From Vitreoscilla sp. (GTDB lineage: Bacteria; Pseudomonadota; Gammaproteobacteria; Burkholderiales; Burkholderiaceae_C), in NCBI GenBank assembly GCA_018780145.1, contig JADMKA010000148.1, positions 1 to 50,469 of the forward strand: 50,469 nt of DNA, in the 5' to 3' direction. A program made the translations under genes and the position numbers. Positions 6,016 to 46,484 of the stretch are shown here, piece after piece. Each line of letters begins with the position of its first letter. Position 1 is the first letter of the stretch. The notes under the pieces are model-generated. The model did no database searches. It was not told the origin of the DNA and saw only the letters and a list, made by a program, of their open reading frames with translations.

Positions 6016-6072
6016 TTGCCGGTTACAACTGTGATGCAATCGAGGTCGACAAAGGATCAGAAGGGGGATTGG

Positions 6073-6885
6073 ATGGCGGGGCGCGTTCAGCGGTTGGTCG
6101 AGCAGGTCAATCAGATGCCGGGATGGCGCCATTGGCGCATGGCCCGTTTCGAGAAGGCGTTCCAGGCAGGGCAGGCGGTTGGCTGCTTCCGCGGCCACTA
6201 TGCGGACTACGAGCAGGCCGCAGCGGCCACGCCTCGGAGTCGGCCACTTGGGTACGATCACGACGACGGCGGCAGGATGTACCGTGATCGGCTGGATTCG
6301 CTCTATCCAGGCGACTACCCGATGGCTGTCTGGCTCGGCAGGGCCATGGCTGACGGTGCCCGGGACATCTTCGATCTTGGGGGGCACATCGGGCTGTCCT
6401 ACTACACCTACCAAAAGGCATTGGTCTACCCTCCCGGCTTGCGCTGGCGTGTCCATGACGTACCGTCGGTGATGGCAGCAGGCAAGGTCGAGGCCGAGAG
6501 CCGCGATCGGTCTGGCCGCCTGGGCTTCGAGGACGAGTTCGCCGCGGCAGACGGGGCTGATGTGCTTTTCACCGCCGGGTGCCTTCAATACCTCCGCGAG
6601 ACCCTGCCGGAGAAGTTGGCGGCATTGCGGAGGTTGCCCCGCTGGGTTCTGGTCAACCTCTTGCCGTTGCACCGGGAGGCCAGCTACTGGACGGTTCAGA
6701 GCATTGGCACGGCGTTCTGCCCCTATCGGATTCAACGCGACAGCGAGTTCTTCGATGGTCTGGCAAGCTTGGGCTACCAGGTTGAAGACCGGTGGGAAAA
6801 CCTGGAGAAGAAGTGCTGGGTTGCGTTCGATCCGGCGCATTCACTGGACCGCTACCACGGGGCAGCCTTCAGGCTGACACGCTGA
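6073..6885 (+). CDS. Putative methyltransferase, TIGR04325 (LIC12133-like) family
   Basis: A 270-aa protein resembling the TIGR04325 putative methyltransferase family, usually found in polysaccharide or other specialised gene clusters. A Rossmann-type SAM-binding loop is suggested by IFDLGGHIGLSYYTY, followed by RVHDVPSVMAAGK at the end of the next strand and LFTAGCLQYL where class I methyltransferases have motif IV. The substrate is unknown. The ATG at 6073 has a strong Shine-Dalgarno (AAGGGGG, 6061-6067); an earlier start would overlap the terminator. A gap of 209 bases without a visible terminator separates it from the biosynthetic operon, so membership of that operon is uncertain. By eye the gene is less GC-extreme than the core genes, compatible with transfer. 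Confidence 0.65.
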   Translation: MAGRVQRLVEQVNQMPGWRHWRMARFEKAFQAGQAVGCFRGHYADYEQAAAATPRSRPLGYDHDDGGRMYRDRLDSLYPGDYPMAVWLGRAMADGARDIFDLGGHIGLSYYTYQKALVYPPGLRWRVHDVPSVMAAGKVEAESRDRSGRLGFEDEFAAADGADVLFTAGCLQYLRETLPEKLAALRRLPRWVLVNLLPLHREASYWTVQSIGTAFCPYRIQRDSEFFDGLASLGYQVEDRWENLEKKCWVAFDPAHSLDRYHGAAFRLTR

Positions 6886-7094: not shown

Positions 7095-7988
7095 ATGTTG
7101 TCAGGTCAGTTCCGACTGCTGGATGTCGATGCGGCATCGTTCAACCCATGGCGCATTGCCGAGGTCAGGCACCGTCTCGGCGACCACCCGCTGCTCCAGA
7201 GCGATGCGCTGATTGCCCTGGCCGAGCGCATGGAGCAGCGCGGCAGCGTTCGCTCGCATGGCAGCGGTGCCCAGGCCGGAACGTCCTTCAACCATGCGCC
7301 GGTGATCTTCCCCAACAAGCAAGCCGCAGCGCAAACGGTTGGCAACCTGCGCGAGGCGAAAGCCTGGACCTCGCTGCTGAATGTCCAGACCGACCCGATC
7401 TACCGGAAGCTGGTCGACGAGGTGCTCGACGACGTCAAGCCGCTGATCGACCTGAAGGACCCGGGCATGTGCTACCGGGGTGGCTGGATCTTCCTGACCT
7501 CGCCGAACACCGTGACTCCCTTCCACATGGACAAGGAGCACAACTTCATCCTGCAGATCAGCGGGAGCAAGACCCTGTATGTCTGGGAGCCGGACGACAC
7601 CGAGGTCGCTTCCGAACAGGCCCGCGACCTGTTCCATGCCACCCACAGCCGGGATCTGGTGACCTGGCGCGACGAGTTTCGCCAGCGTGCCCGTGTGTTC
7701 CATGTCGGGCCCGGCATGGGGGCCTACATGCCGTCGACCAGCCCGCACATGGTCGAGAACGGCCCGGATCCGTCGGTCACCATCAGCTTCACCTACTACA
7801 CCGACTCGACCCGCCGCAACGCGGCGCTGCACAGTGCCCATCAGCGGATGCGTGGCTATGGCCTGACGCCCTCCAAGGTGGGTGACAGGCCGGCTCTGGA
7901 TACCCTGGTCCACTCGATCTGGCGCTTGGGTGGGCGCGGCCAGCGGCCGGTCGACTCGGCACCCTACGCCTCGGCGTCGATCGGTTGA
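7095..7988 (+). CDS. Cupin/JmjC-like 2-oxoglutarate Fe(II)-dependent oxygenase, putative tailoring hydroxylase
   Basis: A 297-aa protein with the facial-triad layout of cupin_8/JmjC-type non-haem iron oxygenases: His144-x-Asp146 in VTPFHMDKEHNF and a distal His218 in STSPHMVENG, 72 residues later. Segments such as RGGWIFLTSP before the HxD and ISGSKTLYVWEP after it are typical of the double-stranded beta-helix core. Enzymes of this kind hydroxylate amino acids, peptides or proteins using 2-oxoglutarate and O2. The gene stops 22 bases before the NRPS-PKS start and is probably the first gene of the operon, so hydroxylation of the free amino acid, of a carrier-bound intermediate or of the product is inferred. 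The start at 7095 has a purine-rich AAGGGATT upstream. Confidence 0.72.
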   Translation: MLSGQFRLLDVDAASFNPWRIAEVRHRLGDHPLLQSDALIALAERMEQRGSVRSHGSGAQAGTSFNHAPVIFPNKQAAAQTVGNLREAKAWTSLLNVQTDPIYRKLVDEVLDDVKPLIDLKDPGMCYRGGWIFLTSPNTVTPFHMDKEHNFILQISGSKTLYVWEPDDTEVASEQARDLFHATHSRDLVTWRDEFRQRARVFHVGPGMGAYMPSTSPHMVENGPDPSVTISFTYYTDSTRRNAALHSAHQRMRGYGLTPSKVGDRPALDTLVHSIWRLGGRGQRPVDSAPYASASIG

Positions 7989-8010
7989 ACTGCCCCCTGA
8001 AGCCAAGCGC

Positions 8011-11000
8011 ATGGAATCGCCCCAGCCGACACCCACCGAGCCGCCCGCCAGTGGCTTGACTCTGCGCGACGTCTTTTCGCCGGCCGTGGATGGGCAGGTG
8101 GGATCCGAGCGGGCGGCGCGGCAATGGGCGCTGCCGGTGGGCCTGGCCTCGGCAGCCCAGGCCTGGGCGCGGGAGTCGGGCTGGGCGGAGGACACACCCG
8201 GTCTGGCCGCCTGGCTGCTGCTGCAACACCATTGGTGCGGTGGCGCCGAGGTGCGCCAGGCGGAGTGCGCCGCAGGTGCCACCCCCACCCAGTGCTGGCA
8301 CCCGGTGGACACCCACCAGGCCGTGCAGGCCTGGGTCGATGCGGTGGATCGCCGCCGCCAAGAAGGGCGGCCGGCACCCGACCCGGCGGCCATGGGCGAC
8401 AGCCTGTGGTGCAGCGGGCCGACGCCGGCCGCGCAGGCCAAGGCGCCGCTGATGCTGGGCGTCGATCCGGGTGATTCCGGTGCCTGGGTGCTTGACTTTG
8501 CGCCGTCCTGGGCGGGCGCCGAACGGTGTCGAGTCGTGGCCGAGGCGCTCGGTCAGACCCTCGGCAGCCTGCTGGCGAATCGCAGCCAGCCGCTGCGCGA
8601 GGTCCAGAGCCTCACCGACGCGCAGCGCGATCGCTGGATGGGTGTCTGGAACGAGCCGCTGCGAGCGATCGACCCCCGCCAGACGGTTCACGGCGCTTTC
8701 ACCCAGCAGGCCCTCACGGCGCCGGACCGCACCGCGTTGGCCTGGGCGGGGGGCAGCCTCAGTTACGCCGAACTGGACCGCCGTTCGGACGCATGGGCCC
8801 GCGCCCTGGTGGCACAGGGCGTAGGCCCGGGCGATCTGGTGGGGGTGTCGCTGGAGCGGTCGCCGCGGGCCATCGTCGCGTTGCTGGCCATCCTGAAATC
8901 CGGTGCGGCCTACCTGCCGGTGGACGCGGCCTACCCGGAAGAGCGCCTGGCCTTCATGCTGCGCGACGCGGGTGTGAAACGGCTGCTGGCCGCTGCGGGT
9001 GACACGGCGTGGCCCTCCGATGTGGCCGTCTGGGACCCTGATGCATGGGTCGACCCGGGTGGGGCGGTGCCCGTTGGAGGCAACACCGAGGCACTCGCCT
9101 ACGTGATGTACACCTCGGGCTCGACCGGCGTGCCCAAGGGCATCGCCATCGGGCACGGCGCCATCCTTCGGCTGGTGGTTGGTGCGCGCTACGTGGATCT
9201 CTCTCCGGCCGTGCGGATGATGCACGCCGCGCCGATCGGCTTCGACGCGTCGACGCTCGAGATCTGGGGCCCGCTGCTGAACGGTGGCTGCTGCGTCATC
9301 CACGACGAGGAACTGCCCACCCCGCAAGGCCTGGCGCGCACGATCAGCGGGCAAGGCGTCACCGCCGCCTGGCTGACGGCCGCCTTGTTCAATGCCGTGG
9401 TGGACGAGGGGCCGCAGCACCTGCGCGGCCTGAAGCAATTGCTGATCGGTGGCGAGGCCTTGTCGGTGCCGCACGTGCGCCGCACGCTGCAGGCCTTGCC
9501 CGAGATGACGCTCATCAATGGCTACGGGCCCACCGAGTGCACCACCTTCATCGCCACCCACCCGATCCCGGCTGACCTGCCGGCCGATGCGCGTTCCGTG
9601 CCCATCGGGCGGCCGATCACCGACACCCACCTCTACATCCTGGGCCCTGGCGGGCATCTGATGCCCGAGGGCCTGGTCGGCGAGTTGCATGCCGGCGGCC
9701 GCGGCCTGGCGCGCGGCTACCTCGGTCGCGACGAGCTCAATGCCGAACGGTTCGTGCAGCACCGTTTCGGTGACACCACCGAGCGCCTGTATCGCACGGG
9801 CGATCTGGCGCGCATCGGCCCTGATGGCGTGATCGAGTTCATCGGCCGCGCCGATGGCCAGGTGAAGGTGCGCGGATTCCGCATCGAGCTCGGCGAGATC
9901 GAATCGGCACTGGCCAGCCACCCGGCCGTTCAGCGCTGCGCCGTGCTGGCCATGAAGGACGCCGCGGGTCAGGCCCGGCTGGTCGCCTACCTGGTCGCTG
10001 CGGGCGAGCCGGCCCCAACCGCCCATTTGCGCAGCCACCTGGCCAGCCGGTTGCCCGAATTCATGGTGCCGGCAGCCTATGTGTGGATGCCGGCGTTGCC
10101 GATCACCGCCAACGGCAAGCTCGACCGGCACGCCTTGCCTTCGCCGTCGGTCGAGCGCCCCGACCTGAGCGTGCCCTACGAAGCCCCCGCGACCCCTGCC
10201 GAGCAGCGGGTGTGCCAGGCCTTTGCGGAGGTGCTGGGCCTGCAGTCGGTGGGCCGGCAGGACAACTTCTTCGAACTCGGCGGCAACTCGCTGGCCGTGC
10301 TGCGTGTGCTGGCCCGGCTGGCGCGCGATGGCGAGACCCGGCTGGCGCCCAAGGCCTTCTTCCGGCTGCCCACGCCGGCAGGCCTGGCACGTGAATTGAG
10401 CGGAGCCGGTGGCAGCGGCGTCGACGGGCAGCGCCTGGCGCGCCGCGCCGCGACCACCGCCGCCGAGCCGATCGCCATCGTCGGCATGGCCGGGCGCTTC
10501 CCGGGGGCTGCAGACGTCGATCGTTTCTGGCGCATGCTCTGCGACGGCCAGGACGGCATCACCACCTTCAGCCCCGAGCAACTCGACCCCAGCCTGCCGG
10601 CGGAATTGACCACCGACGCCGACTACGTGCGCGCCCGCGGGGTGATCGACCAGGTCGACCAGTTCGACGCCGCCTTCTTCGGCATCTCGCCGCGCGAGGC
10701 GGAGTTGATGGATCCGCAGCAGCGGGTCTTCCTGGAGGTCTGCTGGGAGTGCCTGGAGCGCGCCGGCCATGCGCCGGATGCCACCCACATGCCGGTGGGT
10801 GTCTTCGCCGGCATGTACAACGCCAGCTACTTCCAGCGGCATCTGCTGCACCGGCCGGACCTGATCGCCAGGCTCGGCGAGTTCCAGGTCATGCTGGCCA
10901 ACGAGAAGGACTACATCGCCACCCGGGTGGCGCACCGGTTGAACCTCACCGGCCCCGCGGTCAGCGTGCACACGGCCTGTTCGACCTCGCTGGTGGCCAT

Positions 11001-14000
11001 CGCCCAGGCCGTCGCCAGCCTGCGAGCCGGGCAGTGCGACATGGCGCTGGCCGGCGGTGTTTCCATCACCTGCCCGCCGAACAGCGGCTACCTCTACCAG
11101 GACGGCGCCATGCTGTCGCCGGACGGCCGCACGCGCAGCTTCGACGCCCAGGCGCGTGGCACCGTCTTCAGCGACGGAGCCAGCGTGGTGCTGCTGAAGC
11201 GGCTGAGCGATGCCCTGGCCGATGGCGACCAGGTCTGGGCGCTGATCCGCGGCGTGGCCGTCAACAACGACGGGCGCGACAAGGCGAGCTTCACCGCGCC
11301 GAGCGTCGATGGCCAGGCGGCCGTCGTCGCGGCGGCCTTGCGCGCAGCCGAAGTCGATGCCCGCAGCATCTCGTACGTCGAGACCCATGGCACTGCCACG
11401 CCCATGGGCGACCCGGTCGAGGTCGAGGCCCTGACCCGCGCCTACCGCCAGCAGACCGCCGACACCGGCTTCTGCCGCATCGGCTCGCTGAAGAGCAACG
11501 TCGGCCACATGGTCACGGCCGCGGGTGCCGCGGGCGTCATCAAGACGGCCCTGGCCCTGGCCCACGAACACCTGCCGCCCAGCATCCATTTCGACAGCCC
11601 GAACCCGCAGATCGACTTCGCCACCAGCCCGTTCGGCGTTCAGTCCGTCGGTGAACCGTGGCCGCGCGGCCGGGCCCCTCGCCGGGCCGGCGTGAGCAGC
11701 TTCGGTGTCGGCGGCACCAATGCCCATGCGGTGCTGGAAGAGGCGCCGGTGCAGGTGCCGTCGGTGCCGGCCGTCGGGCCGCAGCTGCTGATGTTGTCTG
11801 CGCGCTCCGCGGCGGCGCTGGCGGCGCAGGCCTCGCGACTGGCCGAGCACCTGGGCCGCGATCCGGCGCTCAACCTCGCCGATGTGGCGCACACCCTGCA
11901 AGCCGGCCGCAGCGCCTTCGTGCACCGGCTGGCCGTGGCCGCCGGCTCGGTTGACGAGGCCGTGGCCCAACTGGCATCGGCCGATGCACCTTGGCGAGTG
12001 GCCCGCGCCCTGGGGGGCCAGCAGCGCGCCATGGTCTGGATGTTCCCTGGCCAGGGCAGCCAGTACGGCGGCATGGGCCGCGCCCTGTACGAACGCGACA
12101 GCCATTTCAAGGCGGCCCTCGACGAGGCCTTGGCCGCCATGCGGGGCGTGGTGGCGGTCGATCTGAAGGCGCGCATCTTCGAGGGCGACGATGCGGCCTT
12201 GGTCGACACTGCGGTCACGCAGCCGGCGCTGTTCTGCATCGAGTACGCGTTGGCGCGTGCCTGGATGTCGCGCGTGGGCGCCCCGGTGGCGTTGATCGGC
12301 CACAGCGTCGGCGAGTTCGCCGCGGCGGTGATCGCCGGGGTGATGAGCCTGCCCGATGCCGCCCGGCTGGTGGCGCGGCGCGGCGCCCTGATGCAAGCCC
12401 AGCCGCCCGGCGGCATGCTGGCGGTGCGCCTGCCGCGTGAGCAGGTCGAGGCCCGGCTGCCACCCGAGCTGTCCCTGGCCGCCGAGAACGCGCCGATGGC
12501 CTGCGTGGTGGCCGGGCCCCGTCCGGCATTGGCCGCCTGGGCCTCGCAACTCGAGGCCGAGGGCATCGTCGCCCGAGCCTTGCACACCTCCCACGCCTTC
12601 CACTCGGCCATGATGGAGCCGGCGGTCGAGGCCTTTGCGCAGGAGCTTCAGGGGGTGGCGCTCAGCGCCCCGACCCTGCCGATTGCTTCGACGCTGACCG
12701 GCACCTGGATGCGTGCAGAGGACGCGACGGATCCGCGCTACTGGGCGCGCCATCTGCGCGAGACGGTGCAGTTCTCACGGGCCGTTCTCACCGTGCTGGA
12801 GCAGCACACGGCCGTGTTCCTGGAGCTCGGCCCTCGTGCCATGCTGTCCGCCCTGGCCCGCCAGCACAACCAGGCCGGCCGGCCGCCACCGGTGGCGGTG
12901 GCCAGCCTGGCGGACAACCCTTCCGACGAACTCCACGCCTGGCAACTGGCGCTGGGCCATCTCTGGACGCTGGGGCACGACCCGCGCGAATCCGCCGCGT
13001 TCCCGGCCACGGGCCGGCGCCGTGTGGTGCTGCCCACGTACCCCTTCGAACGCAAGCGCTTCTGGGTCGATGCGCCCGTGCGTGCCGCCGCGGTGAGCGC
13101 GGCCGCGCCGCCGGCACTCCCCGCAGCCGCTGCACCCGACACCCCCATTCCCGCATCAGGACCGACCGCCATGACCACCATCGCCTCTGCTGACGCGTCG
13201 AGCCCCCGCCGGGCTCAGCTGGCCGCCCGACTGCGCGTGCTGTTCGAGGACATCTCCGGCTCCGATTTCGGCGAGGTGGATCTGTCCAGCGGCTTCGTCG
13301 AGCTGGGGCTGGATTCGCTCACGCTGACCCAGGCTGCCCTGCAGGTCAAGGGCGAGTTCAAGGTGGACATCAGCTTCCGCCAGCTGATGGAGAAGTACCG
13401 CAGCATCGACGCCCTGGCCGGCCACCTGGACAGCGTGCTGCCTGCCGAGGCCGCCCCGGCCGCCGCCGCGCCGTTGGTGGCAACAGCACCGGCGATGGCC
13501 TCCACGATGGCCGCCATGCCGGCGATGAGTGGCCCGATGGCTGGCGGCGACCTGGTGCAGCAGGTGATCCAGCAGCAGATGCAGCTGATGGCGCAGCAGC
13601 TGGCGATGCTGCGCGGCGGGGCACCGATGCCTGTTGCACAGGCACCGGCCGTTGCCGTCATGGCGGCCCCGGCAGCCGGTGCTCTCCCGGCCAAGCCAGC
13701 GGCGGCGGAGGAGGGCGGTGCGGTCCGCTACGACGTCAAGAAGGCTTTCGGCGCCATTGCCCGCATCCATACCCAGCCCAGTGAGCTGACCGACCGGCAG
13801 CGCGCTCGCCTGAACGCCTTCATGCGCCGCTACACCGAGCGCACCCAGCGCAGCAAGGCCTATACCACCGAGCACCGCGGCCGCCTGGCTGACCCCCGCG
13901 TGGTCAACGGGTTCCGGCCGATGACCAAGGAGATCACGTACCAGATCGTCGTCGAGCGCTCCAAGGGCTCGCGGATGTGGGATCTGGACGGCAACGAGTA

Positions 14001-15270
14001 CGTGGATGTGCTGAACGGCTTCGGCATGAACATGTTCGGCTGGCAGCCCGATTTCGTGCAGGCCGCCGTGCGCGAGCAGCTCGAGCTCGGCTACGAGATC
14101 GGCCCGCAGCACCCCCTGGCCGGCGAGGTGGCCGAGCTGGTCTGCGAACTCACCGGCTTCGACCGTGCCGGCCTGTGCAACACCGGCTCCGAGGCGGTGA
14201 TGGCAGCGGTGCGCATCGCCCGCACCGTCACCGGCCGCAAGACCCTGGTGCTGTTCACCGGCTCCTACCACGGCACGATGGACGAGGTGCTGGTGCGGGC
14301 AGGGCGCAATGCCAAGGGGATCCCGGCAGCCCCCGGCATCATGTCCGGGGTGTTCGGCGACGTGCGGGTGCTGGAGTACGGCACCGACGAGTCGCTGGAG
14401 TTCATCCGCAACAACGCCGGCGACCTGGCCGCCGTGCTGGTGGAGCCGGTGCAAAGCCGCCGGCCCGATTTCCAGCCGCGCGAGTTTCTGCGCGAGGTGC
14501 GCGAGATCACCGAGAACAGCGGCACCTGCCTGATCTTCGACGAGGTCATCACCGGCTTCCGGGCCCACCTGGGCGGCATGCAGGCGGTGTTCGGCATCCG
14601 CGCCGACCTGGCCTGCTATGGCAAGGTGATCGGCGGCGGCTTCCCGGTCGGCGTGATCGCCGGCAAGCGCGACTACATGGACGCACTGGACGGGGGCGCC
14701 TGGCAGTACGGCGACGACTCCATCCCCACGGTCGGCGTCACCTACTTCGCCGGCACCTTCGTGCGCCACCCGCTGGCGCTGGCTGCGGCCAAGGCCTCGC
14801 TGCTACACCTGAAAAACGCCGGCAACGCGCTGCAGACCCAGCTGAACCTGCACACCGCCGCCATGGCCGACGAGTTGAACGCCTACTGCCGCGAGGCCGG
14901 CGCGCCGCTGGAGATCCGCCACTTCGCGTCGCTGTGGCGCGTCTCCTGGCTGGAAGACCACCCCCTGCAGGATCTGCTGTTCGCGATGATGCGCAGCCGG
15001 GGTGTCCACATCCTCGACAACTTCCCCTGCTTCATGACCACGGCCCACACGGCCGATGACATCGCCGTCATCAAGTCGGCTTTCCGTGAGTCGGTGGCCG
15101 AACTGCAGGAGGCCGGCTTCCTGCCACGCAGCGCCAACGCGGCAGCGGTCTTCGACGCCACGCGCCCGCCGGTGCCCAATGCCAAGCTGGGCCGCGACAA
15201 GGAGGGCCGCCCGGCCTGGTTCGTGCCGGATGCCGCCACGCCCGGCAAGTATGTCAAGCTGGACCACTGA
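8011..15270 (+). CDS. Hybrid NRPS-PKS megasynthase: (partial C)-A-PCP-KS-AT-ACP-aminotransferase
   Basis: A 2419-aa assembly-line enzyme. Residues 1-225 resemble the C-terminal part of a condensation domain without the HHxxxDG motif. The A domain (about 235-735) has YTSGSTG at 367-373 and NGYGPTE at 503-509; the pocket read by eye is D-A-L-W-L-G-G-T-F-K, close to valine codes. A PCP follows (LGGNSL, Ser760). The KS (about 815-1240) has TACSTS with Cys990, ETHGTA and SNVGH, so the Cys-His-His triad is intact. The AT has GHSVGE with Ser1432 and HAFH, indicating malonyl-CoA. The ACP has LGLDSL, Ser1769. After a Gln/Met/Ala-rich linker, a PLP aminotransferase of the glutamate-1-semialdehyde/MycA type follows (CYGKVIGGG, Lys2205). 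No KR, DH or ER is present. Predicted chemistry: aminoacyl plus malonyl gives a beta-keto acyl, then a beta-amino acyl unit. The next synthetase starts 9 bases later. Confidence 0.9.
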   Translation: MESPQPTPTEPPASGLTLRDVFSPAVDGQVGSERAARQWALPVGLASAAQAWARESGWAEDTPGLAAWLLLQHHWCGGAEVRQAECAAGATPTQCWHPVDTHQAVQAWVDAVDRRRQEGRPAPDPAAMGDSLWCSGPTPAAQAKAPLMLGVDPGDSGAWVLDFAPSWAGAERCRVVAEALGQTLGSLLANRSQPLREVQSLTDAQRDRWMGVWNEPLRAIDPRQTVHGAFTQQALTAPDRTALAWAGGSLSYAELDRRSDAWARALVAQGVGPGDLVGVSLERSPRAIVALLAILKSGAAYLPVDAAYPEERLAFMLRDAGVKRLLAAAGDTAWPSDVAVWDPDAWVDPGGAVPVGGNTEALAYVMYTSGSTGVPKGIAIGHGAILRLVVGARYVDLSPAVRMMHAAPIGFDASTLEIWGPLLNGGCCVIHDEELPTPQGLARTISGQGVTAAWLTAALFNAVVDEGPQHLRGLKQLLIGGEALSVPHVRRTLQALPEMTLINGYGPTECTTFIATHPIPADLPADARSVPIGRPITDTHLYILGPGGHLMPEGLVGELHAGGRGLARGYLGRDELNAERFVQHRFGDTTERLYRTGDLARIGPDGVIEFIGRADGQVKVRGFRIELGEIESALASHPAVQRCAVLAMKDAAGQARLVAYLVAAGEPAPTAHLRSHLASRLPEFMVPAAYVWMPALPITANGKLDRHALPSPSVERPDLSVPYEAPATPAEQRVCQAFAEVLGLQSVGRQDNFFELGGNSLAVLRVLARLARDGETRLAPKAFFRLPTPAGLARELSGAGGSGVDGQRLARRAATTAAEPIAIVGMAGRFPGAADVDRFWRMLCDGQDGITTFSPEQLDPSLPAELTTDADYVRARGVIDQVDQFDAAFFGISPREAELMDPQQRVFLEVCWECLERAGHAPDATHMPVGVFAGMYNASYFQRHLLHRPDLIARLGEFQVMLANEKDYIATRVAHRLNLTGPAVSVHTACSTSLVAIAQAVASLRAGQCDMALAGGVSITCPPNSGYLYQDGAMLSPDGRTRSFDAQARGTVFSDGASVVLLKRLSDALADGDQVWALIRGVAVNNDGRDKASFTAPSVDGQAAVVAAALRAAEVDARSISYVETHGTATPMGDPVEVEALTRAYRQQTADTGFCRIGSLKSNVGHMVTAAGAAGVIKTALALAHEHLPPSIHFDSPNPQIDFATSPFGVQSVGEPWPRGRAPRRAGVSSFGVGGTNAHAVLEEAPVQVPSVPAVGPQLLMLSARSAAALAAQASRLAEHLGRDPALNLADVAHTLQAGRSAFVHRLAVAAGSVDEAVAQLASADAPWRVARALGGQQRAMVWMFPGQGSQYGGMGRALYERDSHFKAALDEALAAMRGVVAVDLKARIFEGDDAALVDTAVTQPALFCIEYALARAWMSRVGAPVALIGHSVGEFAAAVIAGVMSLPDAARLVARRGALMQAQPPGGMLAVRLPREQVEARLPPELSLAAENAPMACVVAGPRPALAAWASQLEAEGIVARALHTSHAFHSAMMEPAVEAFAQELQGVALSAPTLPIASTLTGTWMRAEDATDPRYWARHLRETVQFSRAVLTVLEQHTAVFLELGPRAMLSALARQHNQAGRPPPVAVASLADNPSDELHAWQLALGHLWTLGHDPRESAAFPATGRRRVVLPTYPFERKRFWVDAPVRAAAVSAAAPPALPAAAAPDTPIPASGPTAMTTIASADASSPRRAQLAARLRVLFEDISGSDFGEVDLSSGFVELGLDSLTLTQAALQVKGEFKVDISFRQLMEKYRSIDALAGHLDSVLPAEAAPAAAAPLVATAPAMASTMAAMPAMSGPMAGGDLVQQVIQQQMQLMAQQLAMLRGGAPMPVAQAPAVAVMAAPAAGALPAKPAAAEEGGAVRYDVKKAFGAIARIHTQPSELTDRQRARLNAFMRRYTERTQRSKAYTTEHRGRLADPRVVNGFRPMTKEITYQIVVERSKGSRMWDLDGNEYVDVLNGFGMNMFGWQPDFVQAAVREQLELGYEIGPQHPLAGEVAELVCELTGFDRAGLCNTGSEAVMAAVRIARTVTGRKTLVLFTGSYHGTMDEVLVRAGRNAKGIPAAPGIMSGVFGDVRVLEYGTDESLEFIRNNAGDLAAVLVEPVQSRRPDFQPREFLREVREITENSGTCLIFDEVITGFRAHLGGMQAVFGIRADLACYGKVIGGGFPVGVIAGKRDYMDALDGGAWQYGDDSIPTVGVTYFAGTFVRHPLALAAAKASLLHLKNAGNALQTQLNLHTAAMADELNAYCREAGAPLEIRHFASLWRVSWLEDHPLQDLLFAMMRSRGVHILDNFPCFMTTAHTADDIAVIKSAFRESVAELQEAGFLPRSANAAAVFDATRPPVPNAKLGRDKEGRPAWFVPDAATPGKYVKLDH

Positions 15271-15279
15271 GCACCGCCG

Positions 15280-21084
<5,805 letters not shown>

Positions 21085-21091
21085 CGGCCCC

Positions 21092-22180
21092 ATGAGAGTC
21101 GCCCTGCTGGCAGTCGGCCTCGCCCTGCTGCTCGCCGTGGCGGTGGCGGTGGCTCTGGCCTATGGCGGGGTCGGCAGGGCACGCCAGGGTGCCCGCGCGG
21201 CGCAGGCCGTGCCGATCGGCATCCTCGGTGACTCGGACAGCCAGTCCTACCAGGGCCGGATTCCCATCGGGAGCCCCGGCACATCTGCGGGCGGAGCCTT
21301 CCACGCCACCACGCTGCAATGGCCGGAGGTGCTGGCCCGGCTTCGGCCAGGGCAGGTCGACCTGGGGGAGTGGGGGGTCTGGGGGCTGCCGCGATGGCTG
21401 TCGATGGCCCGGGTGCGCGATGGTCTGGCCCTGCGCTGGCGCGGCCCCCGCAAGGAGGACTATCGGCACAACCTCGCCTGGCCCAGCGGCTGTGACGATC
21501 TGAACGAGCGCCCGTGGCGCCAGACCCAGCGGCTCGTGGACATCATGGACGAGGACCCCGAGGCCTGGCGCCGCGGGGTGGTGGTGATCCGCATCGGTGT
21601 CAATGACTTCGGCAAGGAGTCGCTGGATCTGCTGGCTGTCGACAGCACGTCGCCCTCCGTGCATGGCCAGATGCAGGCCTGCGTGCGCCAGATCCGCGAG
21701 GCCGTGCGCCTGATCCGCCAACGCCATGTGGACACGCGCATCGTGGTCGTGGGCATCTTCAACAACGTGCATTGGCCTGAGTACCTGGCCCGCTTCCAGG
21801 CGCCCGACGCCTTGCGCCGCATCGACGACGGGCTGGATGCCTTCGACAATGCCTTGCGATCCTTCGCCGGCGAGCAGCCCGGTGTGGCCTTCTTCGACGA
21901 CCGAGCCTGGTTTTCCAAGCACTGGGGTGGGCGGGATCCGGCCGGGCAGCCCGCCTACCGGACCGTGGTGATCGGTGATGTGCTCCAAGTGACCAACACC
22001 GCGGGCGATGCGCCCAGCAACTCGGTGATCGCCAACGGCCACGCCGGCCTGGTGTGGAACGTCCTGTGGGTGCAGGAACTGGTCGGCCTGCTGCGCTCGG
22101 CGCTGCAGGTGCCCATCGACCCGGTGACGGACGACGAGGTCCGTGCGTTCGTTGCGGCGCTGCTGCGCACACCGCGCTGA
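21092..22180 (+). CDS. SGNH/GDSL-type hydrolase with N-terminal membrane anchor
   Basis: A 362-aa protein. The first 25 residues are a strongly hydrophobic Leu/Val/Ala segment, suggesting a signal anchor or signal peptide with the rest in the periplasm. Block I is seen as GILGDSDSQSY (Ser nucleophile in GDS), block III as RIGVNDFG, and block V as NGHAG with the catalytic His. The usual Asp three residues before that His is Ala, so the enzyme may use a Ser-His dyad or may be a divergent member. It lies between the NRPS and the phosphopantetheinyl transferase with gaps of 7 and 9 bases, so it is almost certainly co-transcribed with them. Removal of an acyl group or other ester hydrolysis on the product is a guess. 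Confidence 0.65.
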   Translation: MRVALLAVGLALLLAVAVAVALAYGGVGRARQGARAAQAVPIGILGDSDSQSYQGRIPIGSPGTSAGGAFHATTLQWPEVLARLRPGQVDLGEWGVWGLPRWLSMARVRDGLALRWRGPRKEDYRHNLAWPSGCDDLNERPWRQTQRLVDIMDEDPEAWRRGVVVIRIGVNDFGKESLDLLAVDSTSPSVHGQMQACVRQIREAVRLIRQRHVDTRIVVVGIFNNVHWPEYLARFQAPDALRRIDDGLDAFDNALRSFAGEQPGVAFFDDRAWFSKHWGGRDPAGQPAYRTVVIGDVLQVTNTAGDAPSNSVIANGHAGLVWNVLWVQELVGLLRSALQVPIDPVTDDEVRAFVAALLRTPR

Positions 22181-22189
22181 AGGTCTGGC

Positions 22190-22843
22190 ATGCGGGCTGT
22201 CCATTGTCAGGGGCCGGCTCAGGTCTGGTGGGTTTCGCTCGATGGCCGGAACCCGGCTGCGGACGGGTCCGCGGTGTCGCTGGATGAGCAGCAGCGGGCC
22301 TGTTCTTTCGTGTTCGACCTGGACAGGCAGCGCCACGTGGCATCGCACGCGGCGTTGCGCGAAATCCTGGCCAGGCACCTGGGCTGCGAGCCTGTGTCGC
22401 TGCGCTTCGCCGCGGGCCCGCACGGCAAACCCAGGCTTGCCGACCCGACCCGCCCCCACTTCAACCTGAGCCACAGCCAGGGCGGCGCGCTGATCGCACT
22501 CAGTGCCGGCCCGGAGGTCGGCGTCGACCTGGAGGCCGCGCGCGACTTGGACGACGCGGCAGTGCTTGCCGCACGGGTGTTCACACCGGCCGAGCAGGAG
22601 GAATGGCTCCGCACGCCGCAGCCGTTGCAATCCCGCGCGTTCCTGAGCGGCTGGACACGCAAGGAGGCCTGCCTCAAGGCCATCGGTTCGGGGCTGTCGG
22701 TGGAGCCCGCCACCTTCGAAGCCGGTCTGGATCCATGCAACCGGATGGTTCGGATGGGCACCCCGGGCTGGCCCGCCCATGTGGAGGTGCATTCGCTGGA
22801 CCTCGGCCCTGACTGGCTGGGCGCCGTGGCCTGGGTGCGCTGA
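22190..22843 (+). CDS. Sfp-type 4'-phosphopantetheinyl transferase
   Basis: Transfers the phosphopantetheine arm of CoA to the Ser of carrier proteins; here the natural targets are the PCPs and ACP of the two upstream synthetases (Ser760, Ser1769, Ser1026, Ser1596). The 217-aa protein has the family motifs in order: FNLSHSQGG from residue 91, VGVDLE with Asp113 and Glu115 (Mg2+ ligands), and WTRKEACLKAIGSGL from residue 155 with the key K-E-A. The length matches the Sfp/Gsp class. It lies 9 bases after the SGNH hydrolase, with GAAGG upstream of the ATG, and appears to be the last gene of the operon; the next gene is convergent. Confidence 0.92.
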   Translation: MRAVHCQGPAQVWWVSLDGRNPAADGSAVSLDEQQRACSFVFDLDRQRHVASHAALREILARHLGCEPVSLRFAAGPHGKPRLADPTRPHFNLSHSQGGALIALSAGPEVGVDLEAARDLDDAAVLAARVFTPAEQEEWLRTPQPLQSRAFLSGWTRKEACLKAIGSGLSVEPATFEAGLDPCNRMVRMGTPGWPAHVEVHSLDLGPDWLGAVAWVR

Positions 22844-22933: not shown

Positions 22934-23914
22934 CTATTTGTACTCGATGAGGGTGGCGCGCCGCTTCAGCAGGCGCAGCCGCCAATAGCGCAAGGCGCCT
23001 GTGACCTCGGCGAACTTGCCGATGCCGAGGAAGGTGGCCCGCAGCAGACGTGTCCTCCATGTGCCATTGCCCTGGATGAACAGCCGCAAGGCCTGTGCGG
23101 GATAGAGCGCCAGCAGCCAGGCCGCCGAAGGGCCCCACAGCGCCAGGCCCAGGAGCGTCAACAGCGGCAACACCAGGCCCCAACCGACACAGCGCATCAG
23201 TTCGCGAACGTTGTGCCGCTCAGGTGGGCCACCGTGCAGGGCGGCACCTTCGGCATACGCATAGCCCGACCGGACACTGCGGATCCACCATTGGCTGAAG
23301 CGCAGCATGTTGGCGTCGTGCAGGGTCATCTCCACCGCCAGCACCTGCACACCCCAGCCGCGCTGCCGCAAGCGAACGCACAACTCGGGCTCTTCCCCGG
23401 CAATCATGCCGGGGTTGTAGCCTCCCACATCGGCCAGGGCTGCGGAACGGAACATCGCGTCGCCGCCACAGGAGCGGGCTGGCCCCGGCGGCACGGCCCA
23501 CTCCACATCGCACAGCAGGTTGTAGACCGACCGTTCCGGGTGGCGTTCTCGCCGACGGCCGCAGACCGCAGCGACTTCGGCATGGGCCGCCATGAAGGCG
23601 GCGGCCGTGGCCAGCCACTGCGAACGCAACTCGCAGTCTCCATCGATGAACTGGACACAGGCTGCAGAAGGTGCCAGTTCGCGCCCCCGCTGGAAGCCGG
23701 CATTGCGGGCACGCGCAGCGGTGAACGGCACACTCATGTCGAGGGCGACGACCTCGGCCCCCATCGAGGCGGCCAACTCGCGCGAGCCGTCGGTGGAGCC
23801 CGAGTCGACATAGACCACCAGCTCGGCCTGCCCCGCCAGCGAGGCTAGGCACCGCCGCAGGCGCTCGCCCTCGTTGCGGCCGATGGCCACCACCACCACG
23901 CCCGCCTGGCTCAT
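22934..23914 (-). CDS. Family 2 glycosyltransferase with C-terminal membrane helices
   Basis: A 326-aa GT-A-fold glycosyltransferase. The N-terminus has VVAIGRNEGERLRRCLASL (the first beta strand and nucleotide-binding start), VYVDSGSTDGS (nucleotide contact) and FIDGDCE at residues 89-95, which serves as the DxD metal site (Asp91, Asp93). GEEPELCVRLRQRGW is the typical acceptor-side ED motif. The last 100 residues hold hydrophobic segments (GLVLPLLTLLGLALWG and neighbours), suggesting inner-membrane attachment. The sugar donor and acceptor are unknown. The gene faces the biosynthetic operon and lies 75 bases downstream of a second GT2 gene on the same strand; the pair looks like a remnant of a polysaccharide or glycan locus. 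Confidence 0.85.
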   Translation of the reverse strand: MSQAGVVVVAIGRNEGERLRRCLASLAGQAELVVYVDSGSTDGSRELAASMGAEVVALDMSVPFTAARARNAGFQRGRELAPSAACVQFIDGDCELRSQWLATAAAFMAAHAEVAAVCGRRRERHPERSVYNLLCDVEWAVPPGPARSCGGDAMFRSAALADVGGYNPGMIAGEEPELCVRLRQRGWGVQVLAVEMTLHDANMLRFSQWWIRSVRSGYAYAEGAALHGGPPERHNVRELMRCVGWGLVLPLLTLLGLALWGPSAAWLLALYPAQALRLFIQGNGTWRTRLLRATFLGIGKFAEVTGALRYWRLRLLKRRATLIEYK

Positions 23915-23989: not shown

Positions 23990-25039
23990 CTAGCGGGTCG
24001 GGCGCGTGCCCAGCCGGGTCTGGATCAGCAGGCGGCCCACGGCCGCCGAGTGGCGTGCAAAGACACCCAGCCCGGCCAATGGGCGGCGCTTGACGAGGTG
24101 CTTCACGATGAGGATGAGATCGGTCAGGAAGGAAAGCCCGGCGCTGAACAGCACGCCGGGCAATCCATCGTGCTTGCGGTAGTAGAGCAGCCCGCTCTCG
24201 ATCTGCAATTCGGGGATCTGCCTGCCAACGTTCAGTTCACCTTCGGACTTGGCGCTGGCCCCGCCGATGTGGATGACACCCGTCGTGGTGAGGCATTCGA
24301 TGGTCCAGCCGGCCTTCCATACCGCGCGGCAGTGATCGACCTCTTCGAAGTAGAGGAAGTAGCGCGGATCGAACAGGCCGACCCGGTCGATCACGCTGCG
24401 CCGGATCAGGTAGTAGCAGCCGACGACCCAGTCGCACTCGCGCACGCCGGGCTTCTCCCGGGCGGCGAGGACAGCGTCCTCCTCCTGGAGAAAGCGCTTG
24501 AAGAGCCCGGTCTGCAGCAAGAAGGTGTGCCAGGGCGACGGAAAGACGCGGCCGGCGTTGACCCCGTGCCCGTGTTCGTCGTGGAGGCTGACACCGAGTA
24601 CCCCGATGTGCTGCTTCGCCTGCATGTAGGTCAGGCTGCGCACCAAGGTGTCCGTCGACACGAAAGCGTCTGTGTTCAGCAGCAGGACATAGGGGGCGTG
24701 GCATGCCGCCAGGGCCTGGTTGTTGGCGCGGCCGAATCCGACGTTCTGCGCGTTGGCGATCAGCGTGCAATCGGGCAGGCGCTGCCGAATGATGCTCAAC
24801 GAATCGTCCCGCGACGCGTTGTCGACGATCACCACCTGAACGCTCAGGCCTGCGGCGGCCAGGCGGAGACTGCCGATGCACCGCTCAAGCAGGTGGCCGG
24901 TGTTGTAGTTGACGATGATCACGTCCAGGTCAGCCGCCTGGCCGCTGGACGCAAATCGAATCGGGGCGGAGCTTGCCGGCCGCGCGGAATCGCACGCGGC
25001 ATCGCAGGCGATCTCGGCACCCAGGTTCTTGTTCGTCAT
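23990..25039 (-). CDS. Family 2 glycosyltransferase, WbbL/rhamnosyltransferase-like
   Basis: A 349-aa GT2 enzyme similar in layout to WbbL-type rhamnosyltransferases. VIIVNYNTGHLLERCIGSL starts the domain, VIVDNASRDDS follows, NVGFGRANNQAL is the characteristic WbbL-type segment, and LLLNTDAFV supplies the metal-site Asp (residue 124). YFEEVDHCRAVWKAGW is the ED motif. A C-terminal amphipathic or hydrophobic stretch may associate with the membrane. The start at 25039 is chosen over an upstream in-frame start because GGGAG precedes it at good spacing and the first 35 residues are already a poorly conserved tail. It lies just downstream of the 3' end of tRNA-Ser, on the same strand. Confidence 0.85.
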   Translation of the reverse strand: MTNKNLGAEIACDAACDSARPASSAPIRFASSGQAADLDVIIVNYNTGHLLERCIGSLRLAAAGLSVQVVIVDNASRDDSLSIIRQRLPDCTLIANAQNVGFGRANNQALAACHAPYVLLLNTDAFVSTDTLVRSLTYMQAKQHIGVLGVSLHDEHGHGVNAGRVFPSPWHTFLLQTGLFKRFLQEEDAVLAAREKPGVRECDWVVGCYYLIRRSVIDRVGLFDPRYFLYFEEVDHCRAVWKAGWTIECLTTTGVIHIGGASAKSEGELNVGRQIPELQIESGLLYYRKHDGLPGVLFSAGLSFLTDLILIVKHLVKRRPLAGLGVFARHSAAVGRLLIQTRLGTRPTR

Positions 25040-25125
25040 CCCTTCCAACTCCCATCGGTCCACCCCGATGCTACCTGCAGTCCGCAAGGCGAGTCGAAGG
25101 CAGCGCGCATAGGCGACGTGCCATG

Positions 25126-25216
25126 TGGCGGAGGGAGCGGGATTCGAACCCGCGGTGGGCTGTTAACCCACACACGCTTTCCAGGCGTGCGACTTAAACC
25201 GCTCATCCATCCCTCC
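25126..25216 (-). tRNA. serT-like: tRNA-Ser (anticodon GGA)
   Basis: Class II tRNA read on the minus strand. The acceptor stem GGAGGGA pairs with TCCCTCC, the discriminator base is G, and CCA is encoded. The anticodon arm CACGC-CTGGAAA-GCGTG gives anticodon GGA (reads UCC/UCU). There is a long variable arm built on GTGGG/CCCAC and a T arm with GGTTCGAATCC. tRNA-Ser genes are frequent integration points for genomic islands; the accessory block begins at its 3' side. Confidence 0.95.
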
Positions 25217-30732: not shown

Positions 30733-32219
30733 ACCGCGAAATGCTGATGTTGGTGGACGCGATCTCGCGCGAGAAGAGCGTCGAGCGCGATGTCGTGTTC
30801 GGCGCCGTCGAGGCGGCGCTGGCCCAGGCGACCAAGAAGCTGCACGGCGGCGAGGTGGACATCCGCGTCACCGTCGACCGCGAAACCGGCGAATACGAGA
30901 CCTTCCGTCGCTGGCACGTGGTGCCGGACGAAGCCGGCCTGCAGATCCCCGACGCCGAGATCCTGCTGTTCGAGGCCAAGGAGCAGATCGACGACATCGA
31001 GGTCGACGACCACATCGAGGAAGCCATCGATTCGGTGCCCATCGGCCGCATCGGTGCGCAGGCCGCCAAGCAGGTCATCCTGCAGAAGATCCGCGACGCC
31101 GAGCGCGAGCAGCTGCTGAACGACTTCCTCTCGCGTGGCGAGCGGATCTTCGTCGGCACCGTGAAGCGCCTGGACAAGGGCGACATCATCGTCGAGTCGG
31201 GCCGAGTCGAAGGCCGCCTGAAGCGCAGCGAGATGATCCCGAAGGAAAACCTGCGCTCGGGTGACCGTGTCCGTGCCTTCATGGCCGGTATCGACACCCT
31301 GGCGCGCGGCCCGCAGATCATGCTGTCGCGCTCAGCGCCCGGCTTCATGGTCGAGTTGTTCGCCCAGGAAGTGCCCGAGATCGAACAAGGTCTGCTGGAG
31401 ATCAAGAGCTGCGCCCGCGACCCGGGCAGCCGCGCCAAGATCGCCGTCGTGTCGCACGACAAGCGGGTCGACCCGATCGGCACCTGCGTCGGCGTACGCG
31501 GTTCGCGCGTCACCGCGGTGACCAACGAGCTGGCCGGCGAGCGGGTGGACATCGTTCTGTGGTCGGAAGACCCAGCGCAGTTCGTGATCGGCGCGCTGGC
31601 GCCGGCCAACGTGCAGTCCATCGTCGTCGACGAGGAAAAGCATGCGATGGATGTGGTGGTCGACGAGGAGAATCTCGCCATCGCCATCGGCCGCGGCGGC
31701 CAGAACGTCCGGCTGGCGTCCGAGCTCACCGGCTGGCGCATCAACATCATGACGGCCGAGGAATCGGCCGCCAAGCAGGCCGAGGAGTCGGGCTCCATCC
31801 GCAAGCTCTTCGTCGACAAGCTCGACGTGGACGAGGAAGTCGCCGACATCCTGATTGCCGAGGGCTTCACCAGCCTGGAAGAAGTGGCCTATGTGCCGCT
31901 ACAGGAGCTGCTGGAGATCGAAGGCTTCGACGAGGACACGGTGGGCGAGTTGCGCACCCGTGCCAAGGACGCCTTGCTGACGATGGAAATCGCCCGAGAG
32001 GAACGCGTCGAGGAAGTCTCGCAGGACCTTCGCGACCTCGAGTACGACGGCAAGGGCCTGTCGCCCGAGCTGATCTCCAAGCTCGCCGACGGCGGCGTGC
32101 ACACCCGCGACGACCTGGCCGACCTGGCCGTCGACGAACTCATCGAGATGACCGGCGTGGATGACGCGCAGGCCAAGGCGCTGATCATGAAGGCGCGCGA
32201 ACATTGGTTCAACGCCTGA
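30729..32219 (+). CDS. nusA: Transcription termination/antitermination factor NusA
   Basis: RNA-polymerase-binding elongation factor that promotes pausing and hairpin termination and takes part in antitermination. The 496-aa protein has the standard order: N-terminal RNAP-binding domain (1-130), S1 domain (about 135-200, [15 protein letters not shown]), KH1 and KH2 (about 200-345, with [12 protein letters not shown] and [16 protein letters not shown] as the KH GXXG regions) and two C-terminal acidic repeats that bind RNAP alpha or lambda-N-like factors. Normal length for a proteobacterium with both acidic repeats. Coupled to rimP by a 4-base overlap. Confidence 0.97.
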
Positions 32220-46133: not shown

Positions 46134-46484
46134 TCATGGCGGGGCGGCGGGCCAGAGGCTGCGTGCCGCCTGGCAGGCGCTGTCGTCCCAGGACCGCTCG
46201 CAGCGGCTGCGCACCAGGCCGCACATGGCCTCGCCGGCACTGCGGATCTCGCGGTAAGCCTGGGCATCGATGGCACCGACACCGGCGACGAAGACCTGAG
46301 GGGCTGCGCCGGGGTTGTCTGGCCGGCTGTCGCGTTGTGCCAGGCAGGCATCGCGGGTCATCGCGTCGACGCAGCGCGCCACCAGCCCCGCCAGATCGTC
46401 GCGGGGCGGCGGGGGCTCGGGCCGGCATCCGGCCCCCAGCACGACCACCAGAGTGGCCATTGCCCAGCGGGGGCCCGAGCCCAT
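46134..46484 (-). CDS. Small putative lipoprotein, unknown function
   Basis: A 116-aa protein whose N-terminus (short basic start, MATLVVVLGAGC) looks like a lipoprotein signal with Cys20, though the position before the lipobox is Gly rather than Leu. Five further Cys residues in the mature part could form disulfides (for example in RCVDAM, DACLAQ, AMCGLVRSRCERS, SACQAAR). I do not recognise a family. The ATG overlaps the stop of the large G8 lipoprotein (TGATG), suggesting translational coupling and a shared role at the envelope. The preceding codon is GTG and could also serve as start. Confidence 0.6.
   Translation of the reverse strand: MGSGPRWAMATLVVVLGAGCRPEPPPPRDDLAGLVARCVDAMTRDACLAQRDSRPDNPGAAPQVFVAGVGAIDAQAYREIRSAGEAMCGLVRSRCERSWDDSACQAARSLWPAAPP

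What the first reader, a model, noticed from the sequence alone, without database searches (positions are those of the whole stretch)
7095..22843. Unrecognised NRPS-PKS pathway predicted to make a beta,gamma-diamino acid unit
Sequence shows A-PCP-KS-AT-ACP-aminotransferase in one protein with no KR, DH or ER. Known MycA-type enzymes run KS-AT-ACP-aminotransferase on a fatty acyl starter and make beta-amino fatty acids. Here the starter in front of the KS is an amino acid loaded by an A-PCP, so the same chemistry would give a 4-amino-3-oxoacyl thioester and then a vicinal 3,4-diamino acyl unit. From a Val starter and malonate this is 3,4-diamino-5-methylhexanoate, then extended with Gly by the second protein. 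Transamination of the keto group would also prevent spontaneous tetramate-type cyclisation. I know of no characterised pathway with this exact order, though I could not search.
Basis: partly seen in the sequence, partly recalled or inferred. Interest (0 to 1): 0.85.

Follow-up and report, generated by a model that had tools for sequence, protein, structure and literature searches.

The report
Diamino-acid assembly line, often polysaccharide-linked
A bacterial enzyme assembly line that probably builds an amino acid with two neighbouring amino groups from valine and malonate; relatives are widespread and often sit among genes for making the cell's outer slime, but no product is known.

Summary
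In detail: 8011-15270 encodes (half-C)-A-PCP-KS-AT-ACP-AMT with no KR, DH or ER found, and 15280-21084 encodes C-A-PCP-C-PCP-TE. The A codes read Val-like and Gly-like; the AT has the malonyl motif; active-site motifs are intact. The AMT is nearest the solved MycA AMT, and the KS falls in a clade of mostly NRPS-fed KS. The best prediction is a 3,4-diamino-5-methylhexanoyl unit, then Gly (perhaps Gly-Gly). No chemistry is shown. The order is not unprecedented: a 2013 table lists A-CP-KS-AT-CP-PLP1 (Pedobacter) without a characterised product. I found it complete in 69 of 80 related loci (Variovorax, Thiomonas, Ideonella, Methylibium, Lysobacter, Dyella and others), mostly with Val-like starter codes. 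New here: such lines often lie near exopolysaccharide genes (13 of 24 chosen genomes against about 0.5 expected; in a less selected sample 5 of 16, against 0 of 20 for other AMT lines). In Ideonella most of the window's cassette lies inside such a cluster. The link is not universal: the window's contig holds only two glycosyltransferases, and some Variovorax loci have an efflux pump nearby. I found no open-access paper on product or link. New variant of a known kind; the bold reading is peptide-decorated exopolysaccharide.

The parts
6016..6885 (+). TIGR04325-family methyltransferase; its family recurs beside related lines
   Evidence: 191 bits against cut-off 80; homologues in 15 of 80 loci and 5 of 14 plasmid loci, within the flanks held; not beside the Ideonella line
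7095..7988 (+). Cupin_8/JmjC-like putative Fe(II)/2-oxoglutarate oxygenase (possible hydroxylase of the product)
   Evidence: Pfam Cupin_8 23.9 bits, below the 27.4 cut-off; HxD...H invariant in 7 aligned sequences; model pLDDT 88, best PDB matches YxbC, NO66 and FIH with TM about 0.5 and 10-18% identity; homologue in 9 of 80 loci
8011..15270 (+). NRPS-PKS protein: half-C, A1(Val-like), PCP, KS, AT(malonyl), ACP, AMT
8011..8697 (+). N-terminal half condensation domain, no HHxxxDG
   Evidence: alignment of 18; model pLDDT 84; top PDB matches are C domains, E 3e-11
8698..10119 (+). A1 domain, code DALWLGGTFK (Val-like)
   Evidence: Pfam; code
10204..10395 (+). PCP1 (GGNSL at 10279)
10465..11595 (+). 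KS; Cys motif 10975, His motifs 11386 and 11494
12034..12897 (+). AT; GHSVG 12298, HAFH 12592 (malonyl-type motif, meaning recalled)
13117..13401 (+). ACP (LGLDSL at 13303); limits approximate
13939..15018 (+). AMT, class III aminotransferase, PLP-Lys motif GKVIGGG at 14620
   Evidence: Pfam; MycA AMT 6kfm 440 bits, next family 183
15280..21084 (+). NRPS protein: C1, A2(Gly-like), PCP2, C2, PCP3, TE
16735..18186 (+). A2 domain, code DILQLGLIWK (Gly-like)
18535..20172 (+). C2-PCP3 module without an A domain; HHIVWDG at 18934, GGNSL at 20056
20215..21081 (+). TE; nucleophile motif GGLCAGG at 20437 (Cys in place of Ser); a TE like it was found in 1 of 80 relatives (L025)
21092..22180 (+). SGNH/GDSL hydrolase with a hydrophobic N-terminus
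   Evidence: PF13472 34.4 bits, cut-off 32.9; start; homologue in 2 of 80 loci
22190..22843 (+). 4'-phosphopantetheinyl transferase
   Evidence: homologue in 56 of 80 loci
22934..23914 (-). GT2 glycosyltransferase, 62% identical to the one beside the Ideonella line (only locus of 80 with a match)
23990..25087 (-). GT2 glycosyltransferase, 57% identical to the one in the Ideonella EPS cluster (only locus of 80 with a match)

Best explanation
An NRPS-PKS-NRPS assembly line. A1 loads Val on PCP1; the KS decarboxylatively condenses it with malonate on the ACP to 4-amino-3-oxo-5-methylhexanoyl-ACP; the MycA-like AMT replaces the 3-keto group by an amine, giving a 3,4-diamino-5-methylhexanoyl unit; C1 joins this to Gly (A2-PCP2); C2-PCP3 probably adds a second Gly charged by A2; the TE releases it (free acid, lactam, or transfer to another acceptor). 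The cupin-type oxygenase and the methyltransferase may tailor it. Shown here: domains, motifs, codes, clades and conservation of the order. Inferred: every chemical step, the second Gly, and any link of the product to a surface polysaccharide. My step estimates: diamino unit about 0.7; Gly next about 0.7; Gly-Gly about 0.4; polysaccharide-related role about 0.35-0.4.
For: Order complete in 69 of 80 loci; of the rest, 10 are cut by a contig start and L088 lacks KS/AT. AMT PLP-Lys motif in 80 of 80; malonyl motif in 71 of 71 AT and KS triad in 67 of 68 KS long enough to judge. AMT nearest MycA AMT. KS tree of 54: all 23 rows that I labelled aminoacyl-fed fall in a 30-row clade (100/100); of its other seven, five follow an NRPS module, one follows a KS-PCP (G1062_6311) and one has unknown context; the rows labelled FAAL-fed lie outside. 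A1 codes vary (Val-like 48 of 69, others such as Thr, Pro, Gly) under one KS-AMT type. Where module 3 has an A domain with a readable code, it reads Gly-like (G264, L051, L083; G976).
Against: No chemistry or expression data. Five of the seven module-3 A domains in the 80 loci give unreadable codes. A2 is Gly-like in only 22 of 75 loci. In Methylibium a further protein with a Ser-like A domain (DVRHVSLVEK) follows, so the chain need not end at module 3. The accessory genes are poorly conserved: cupin 9, SGNH 2, each GT2 1 of 80 loci. Codes and code positions are partly recalled; PMC12283262 (passages) gives codes one residue away for Val (DALWIGGTFK) and Gly (DILQLGMIWK). A half-C at the N-terminus leaves open an N-cap supplied in trans.
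Confidence: 0.66

Rival explanations
1. Same chemistry, but the product is a free secreted small molecule (signal, metal ligand or weak antibiotic); the exopolysaccharide neighbours in relatives are incidental or merely co-regulated.
For: The window's line sits between housekeeping-type genes with no EPS-priming gene on its contig; the own genome's matches lie on C17 and C199. No EPS-priming gene within 25 kb in 4 genomes of genus g19 or in G264. An AcrB-family (RND) permease gene lies near the line in 17 of 80 loci (cluster 6, one member checked), and RND, HlyD and TolC genes stand upstream in Variovorax RA8. A TE is present.
Against: Recurrent EPS neighbours in Alpha-, Beta- and Gammaproteobacteria; no MFS, ABC, MATE or RND family among the Pfam hits of the window genes from 4637 to 25087.
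Confidence: 0.4
2. The 4-amine closes on the thioester, so the main product is a gamma-lactam (4-amino-5-isopropylpyrrolidin-2-one type) or, if the AMT is slow, a tetramate or pyrrolinone; the downstream NRPS works on little or nothing.
For: Five-membered closure is chemically easy for gamma-amino thioesters (established chemistry, recalled); no complete N-capping C domain in the window.
Against: Both C domains keep HHxxxDG and the carrier Ser motifs are intact; C-A-PCP-C follows the AMT in 73 of 80 loci, the other 7 showing less.
Confidence: 0.12
3. MycA-like beta-amino fatty acid line with a fatty-acyl starter.
For: AMT related to MycA.
Against: A1 matches the amino acid adenylation model (TIGR01733 403 bits, cut-off 317) with a Val-like code, and KS and AMT fall apart from the FAAL-fed lines.
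Confidence: 0.02

Closest known systems
MycA / BamA (mycosubtilin, bacillomycin D) PKS-AMT lines
   Same: Class III AMT after a carrier protein, acting on a beta-ketoacyl thioester; AMT followed by a C domain; MycA AMT is the best solved match
   Different: Starter is an amino acid loaded by A-PCP, not a fatty acid; AT in cis (BamA has a separate BamD); AMT and KS apart from those of BamA
Uncharacterised A-CP-KS-AT-CP-PLP1 proteins of PMC3870968 Table 2 (Pedobacter heparinus C6XWU5; longer Salinisphaera F7QBN5, Thiorhodococcus G2E5C9)
   Same: Same domain order with a GSA-like Aminotran_3 domain
   Different: Only listed, with machine-predicted monomers; I did not fetch these sequences
Statine-type and other amino-acid-plus-malonate hybrids (recalled)
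   Same: Gamma-amino beta-keto intermediate from an aminoacyl-fed KS
   Different: Those reduce the ketone with a KR; here an AMT takes that place and no KR is found
Rhizobium SL42 and Rhodobacter CZR27 lines next to EPS genes (L141, L144)
   Same: A-PCP, KS-AT-ACP-AMT-C-A(Gly-like)-PCP and a separate C-PCP-TE, matching the window's logic
   Different: Split over three or two proteins, other A1 codes, EPS genes around them

Membership tests
MycA-type AMT PKS-NRPS | Class III AMT downstream of the ACP, PLP lysine present | tested here: met
MycA-type AMT PKS-NRPS | Fatty-acyl starter (FAAL-ACP feeding the KS) | tested here: not met
   A1 code DALWLGGTFK, TIGR01733 over cut-off; KS outside the FAAL-fed rows
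MycA-type AMT PKS-NRPS | AMT in one clade with MycA-type AMT | tested here: not met
   tree of 34: 25 AMT of aminoacyl-fed lines together (97/96), BamA outside; MycA itself was not in the tree
Hybrid NRPS-PKS (aminoacyl-fed) module | A-PCP directly before the KS in the same chain | tested here: met
   69 of 80 relatives
Hybrid NRPS-PKS (aminoacyl-fed) module | KS in the NRPS-fed hybrid clade | tested here: met
   references were fetched loci labelled by what stands upstream, not a curated KS set; one KS-PCP-fed row lies inside
Hybrid NRPS-PKS (aminoacyl-fed) module | Val and Gly actually loaded | not testable with these tools
   needs ATP-PPi exchange or MS
Beta,gamma-diamino acid pathway | Diamino product detected | not testable with these tools
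   no metabolite data
XrtA/PEP-CTERM exosortase EPS system | Exosortase encoded with the EPS genes beside the line | tested here: not met
   PF09721 matched in 17 of 26 genomes, not in those of L057, L064, L088, L090, L093, L095, L096, L097, L099; none of the matches placed within 25 kb of the line (in the L067 genome it may be about 35 kb away, contig not verified), although XrtA-labelled EPS families flank the Thiomonas line
EPS-linked NRPS-PKS | EPS-priming gene close to the line | tested here: inconclusive
   13 of 24 chosen genomes and 5 of 16 in a less selected sample; not met on the window's contig, which has two GT2 only

The most novel reading that the evidence does not exclude
A widespread class of NRPS-PKS lines in Proteobacteria makes short diamino-acyl peptides that decorate exopolysaccharides, giving them cationic, metal-binding vicinal diamines; the window carries a compact version (methyltransferase, oxygenase, line, SGNH protein, PPTase, two GT2) of what in Ideonella lies within a Wzx/Wzy-type EPS cluster.
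Probability: 0.3. Interest if true: 0.85.

Novelty: new variant of a known kind. Interest (0 to 1): 0.62.

Why it matters
A vicinal 3,4-diamino acid made by one KS-AT-ACP-AMT module from the amino acid its A domain loads would be a simple genetic route to a rare building block, with natural versions (Val-, Thr-, Pro- and Gly-like codes) to compare. If the product is attached to exopolysaccharide, it would join secondary metabolism to biofilm matrix chemistry and suggest a function for many uncharacterised clusters in common soil bacteria.

Tried and rejected
MycA-like fatty-acyl starter: rejected by the A1 code and by the KS and AMT trees. Exosortase system: XrtA-labelled EPS families flank the Thiomonas line, but exosortase is missing from 9 of 26 genomes and no match was placed within 25 kb of a line. 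Strict single origin of aminoacyl-fed KS: a first tree suggested it (24 rows, 99/95); a wider one needs 3-4 label changes. PDB top KS match 7zma (638 bits) was a sum over two KS domains, so it was not used. tRNA-Ser 25126-25216 as an island insertion site: the longest outside match to the tRNA end was 12 bases at 31203, so not supported. The sheath idea (Leptothrix) gave no obvious paper on an NRPS role in the 15 of 38 papers listed. Open-access searches: (NRPS, polyketide, exosortase, exopolysaccharide) 0 papers, 0 papers; some searches listed papers of which none, by title and start of abstract, describes this line's product or its EPS link. Read: section 7 and passages of PMC3870968; passages of PMC12283262 and PMC5583390; nothing more of any other paper. 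Most subscription papers are not in that library. Counts corrected: one search held one duplicate (LuteiOK325 = L097), so one search is cited; 15 apparent AMT misses were a too-narrow pattern (80 of 80).
Full report
What is there. P0002 (15280-21084) and the long ORF ending at 15270 are a two-protein NRPS-PKS line. Pfam gives AMP-binding, PP-binding (two stretches), ketoacyl synthase, acyltransferase and Aminotran_3 in the first protein, and Condensation (two), AMP-binding, PP-binding (two) and Thioesterase in the second; no KR, DH or ER family is listed. With the motif positions the order is A-PCP-KS-AT-ACP-AMT and C-A-PCP-C-PCP-TE. The first protein most likely starts at the ATG at 8011, just after the stop of an upstream cupin gene. 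Its first 229 residues are a half condensation domain without the HHxxxDG lobe (model pLDDT 84; best PDB matches are C domains). Around it lie a TIGR04325 methyltransferase, a Cupin_8-like gene with an invariant HxD...H triad in seven sequences and a fold nearest YxbC, NO66 and FIH at TM about 0.5, an SGNH protein, a PPTase and two GT2 genes. Housekeeping-type genes flank the set. In the held genome the best matches to the first protein outside this window score 137 bits or less.

Motifs and codes. The four carrier Ser motifs, both HHxxxDG motifs, the KS triad, the AT GHSVG and HAFH motifs and the AMT lysine motif are present; the TE has Cys in the nucleophile place. The ten-residue codes, read at positions I recalled from the PheA scheme, are DALWLGGTFK for A1 and DILQLGLIWK for A2. 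PMC12283262 (passages) names DALWIGGTFK among Val codes, DILQLGMIWK for Gly and DFWNIGMVHK in its Thr section, so the window's two codes are each one residue from a listed one.

Relatives. A scan of genome contigs found 234 relatives of the ACP-AMT region and kept the best 80. The order A-PCP-KS-AT-ACP-AMT is complete in 69 of 80; 10 are cut by a contig start, and L088 has ACP-AMT without a recognisable KS or AT. A1 is Val-like in 48 of 69; others read Pro-, Thr- or Gly-like or have codes I cannot name. A2 is Gly-like in 22 of 75. Downstream, C-A-PCP-C-PCP without an A in the last module is found in 59 of 80, C-A-PCP-C-A-PCP in 7, other or cut forms in 14; a TE like the window's in 1 (L025). 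Where the last A has a readable code it is Gly-like (L051, L083 and unnamed G264; G976); in five of the seven it is not readable. I infer that A2 also charges PCP3 in the window; this is not shown. Methylibium NZG carries a further protein with a Ser-like A domain. Accessory genes vary: PPTase in 56 of 80, TIGR04325 in 15, cupin in 9, SGNH in 2, the two GT2 in 1 each, within the flanks held.

Clades. The best solved match of the AMT is the MycA AMT (440 bits, next family 183). In a tree of 34, 25 AMT of aminoacyl-fed lines group apart from BamA, Paenibacillus, Planktothrix and Nostoc AMT (97/96); several branches there are long. A KS tree of 54 rows puts all 23 rows that I labelled aminoacyl-fed in a 30-row clade (100/100). 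Of the other seven, five follow an NRPS module (G218, G680, G749, G833, G1062_2473), one follows a KS-PCP (G1062_6311) and one has unknown context (G238_35016). Rows labelled FAAL-fed lie outside, BamA and Paenibacillus as the nearest; several outside rows have no recognised feeder in view. FAAL labels rest on annotation (Planktothrix), recall (BamA) or on the look of the code. The aminoacyl-fed KS are not a strict single clade (3-4 changes). The references were loci fetched here, not a curated set.

Surroundings in relatives. In Ideonella oryzae (L025, L122) homologues of the window's cupin, both synthetases, SGNH protein, PPTase and both GT2, but not the methyltransferase, lie between a WcaJ-type sugar-phosphate transferase and WecG, Wzz, a Wzc/ParA-like protein, Wzy and Wzx genes; its A1 code is Thr-like. 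In Thiomonas delicata the cupin and line follow EPS transferase, export, chain-length and tyrosine-kinase genes labelled XrtA. Variovorax paradoxus VAI-C has export, tyrosine kinase and sugar transferase genes three genes after its line. Of 78 plasmid records with an AMT match (30 listed) I looked at 14. Nine are of this starter type; seven have EPS genes nearby (Variovorax VAI-C, Rhizobium SL42 and CCGE532, Aliiroseovarius, Rhodobacter, Loktanella, Jannaschia) and two do not in the stretch shown (Variovorax RA8, Spirosoma). Of four annotated loci of the other type none does; one unannotated locus was set aside (two-sided p 0.02). For L149-L152 the type was judged from annotation, not from my domain scan. 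Against the link, an AcrB-family permease lies near the line in 17 of 80 loci, and RA8 has RND, HlyD and TolC genes upstream.

Counts. In 24 genomes chosen from the 80 loci a sugar-phosphate transferase gene lies within 26 kb of the AMT in 13 (12 within 25 kb), 10 by a TIGR03025 match over its cut-off and 3 by a shorter match below it, against 0.5 expected. Three of the 24 were known beforehand to have EPS-type neighbours; without them it is 10 of 21. Hit counts were entered by hand, and one (L029) should be 6 instead of 5. Relatedness among these genomes is not corrected. As a less selected test I took every genome with an AMT match (E 1e-100 or 1e-110) in evenly drawn order, class and phylum samples: 36 besides the own genome. 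Sixteen are aminoacyl-fed or likely so (G680 follows a peptide module, G1122 is cut), twenty are not or show no such feeder. A PF02397 gene lies within 25 kb in 5 of 16 (G592, G976, G1080, G1082, G1109) and 0 of 20 (one-sided p 0.012). Several contigs in both groups are too short to judge. Exosortase itself is absent from 9 of 26 genomes, so the link is to EPS assembly, not to the exosortase system. The window's own contig has no priming gene; the relative of the Ideonella WcaJ (65%) is on contig C17, where none of the other Ideonella EPS proteins had a match.

Interpretation. The diamino reading is the best supported: an A-PCP-fed KS, a malonyl AT, no reductive domain, and a MycA-like AMT in the right place. 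Whether the product is free or bound to a polysaccharide is open; I put the bound reading at 0.3.

Known or new. PMC3870968 (section 7 read) lists the order A-CP-KS-AT-CP-PLP1 in Pedobacter heparinus and within longer proteins of Salinisphaera and Thiorhodococcus, with predicted monomers only; the words exopolysaccharide and vicinal do not occur in its main text. Ten searches of the open-access library showed no paper on a product of this order or on the EPS link in their listings.

Noticed in passing
L088:9383-11536: A PCP-AMT reading frame of 718 aa with C-A-PCP-C-PCP after it but no KS or AT recognised in the 10 kb upstream.
   Followed up: no
A2 domains of related loci, e.g. L058, L074, L084: Frequent A2 codes DMPQWGGVYK (17 of 75) and DMPQWGLVWK (10 of 75), and DISDITGVWK in A1 (3 of 69) or A2 (6 of 75), whose amino acid I cannot name.
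   Followed up: no
window 20437: TE nucleophile motif is GGLCAGG, with Cys in the usual Ser place.
   Followed up: no
L094:2182-4155: Two tandem cupin genes before the line.
   Followed up: no
L053:17953-19062, L056:17321-18217 and their clusters: In many loci without a TE (clusters in 40 and 31 of 80) alpha/beta hydrolases resemble exosortase-A hydrolases 1 and 2 below cut-off; possible stand-ins for the TE.
   Followed up: partly
window 46484-49405 (-): Large protein with G8 and CEMIP beta-helix domains.
   Followed up: no
window 25126-25216 (-): tRNA-Ser beside the end of the gene set; no direct repeat supports an insertion there.
   Followed up: yes
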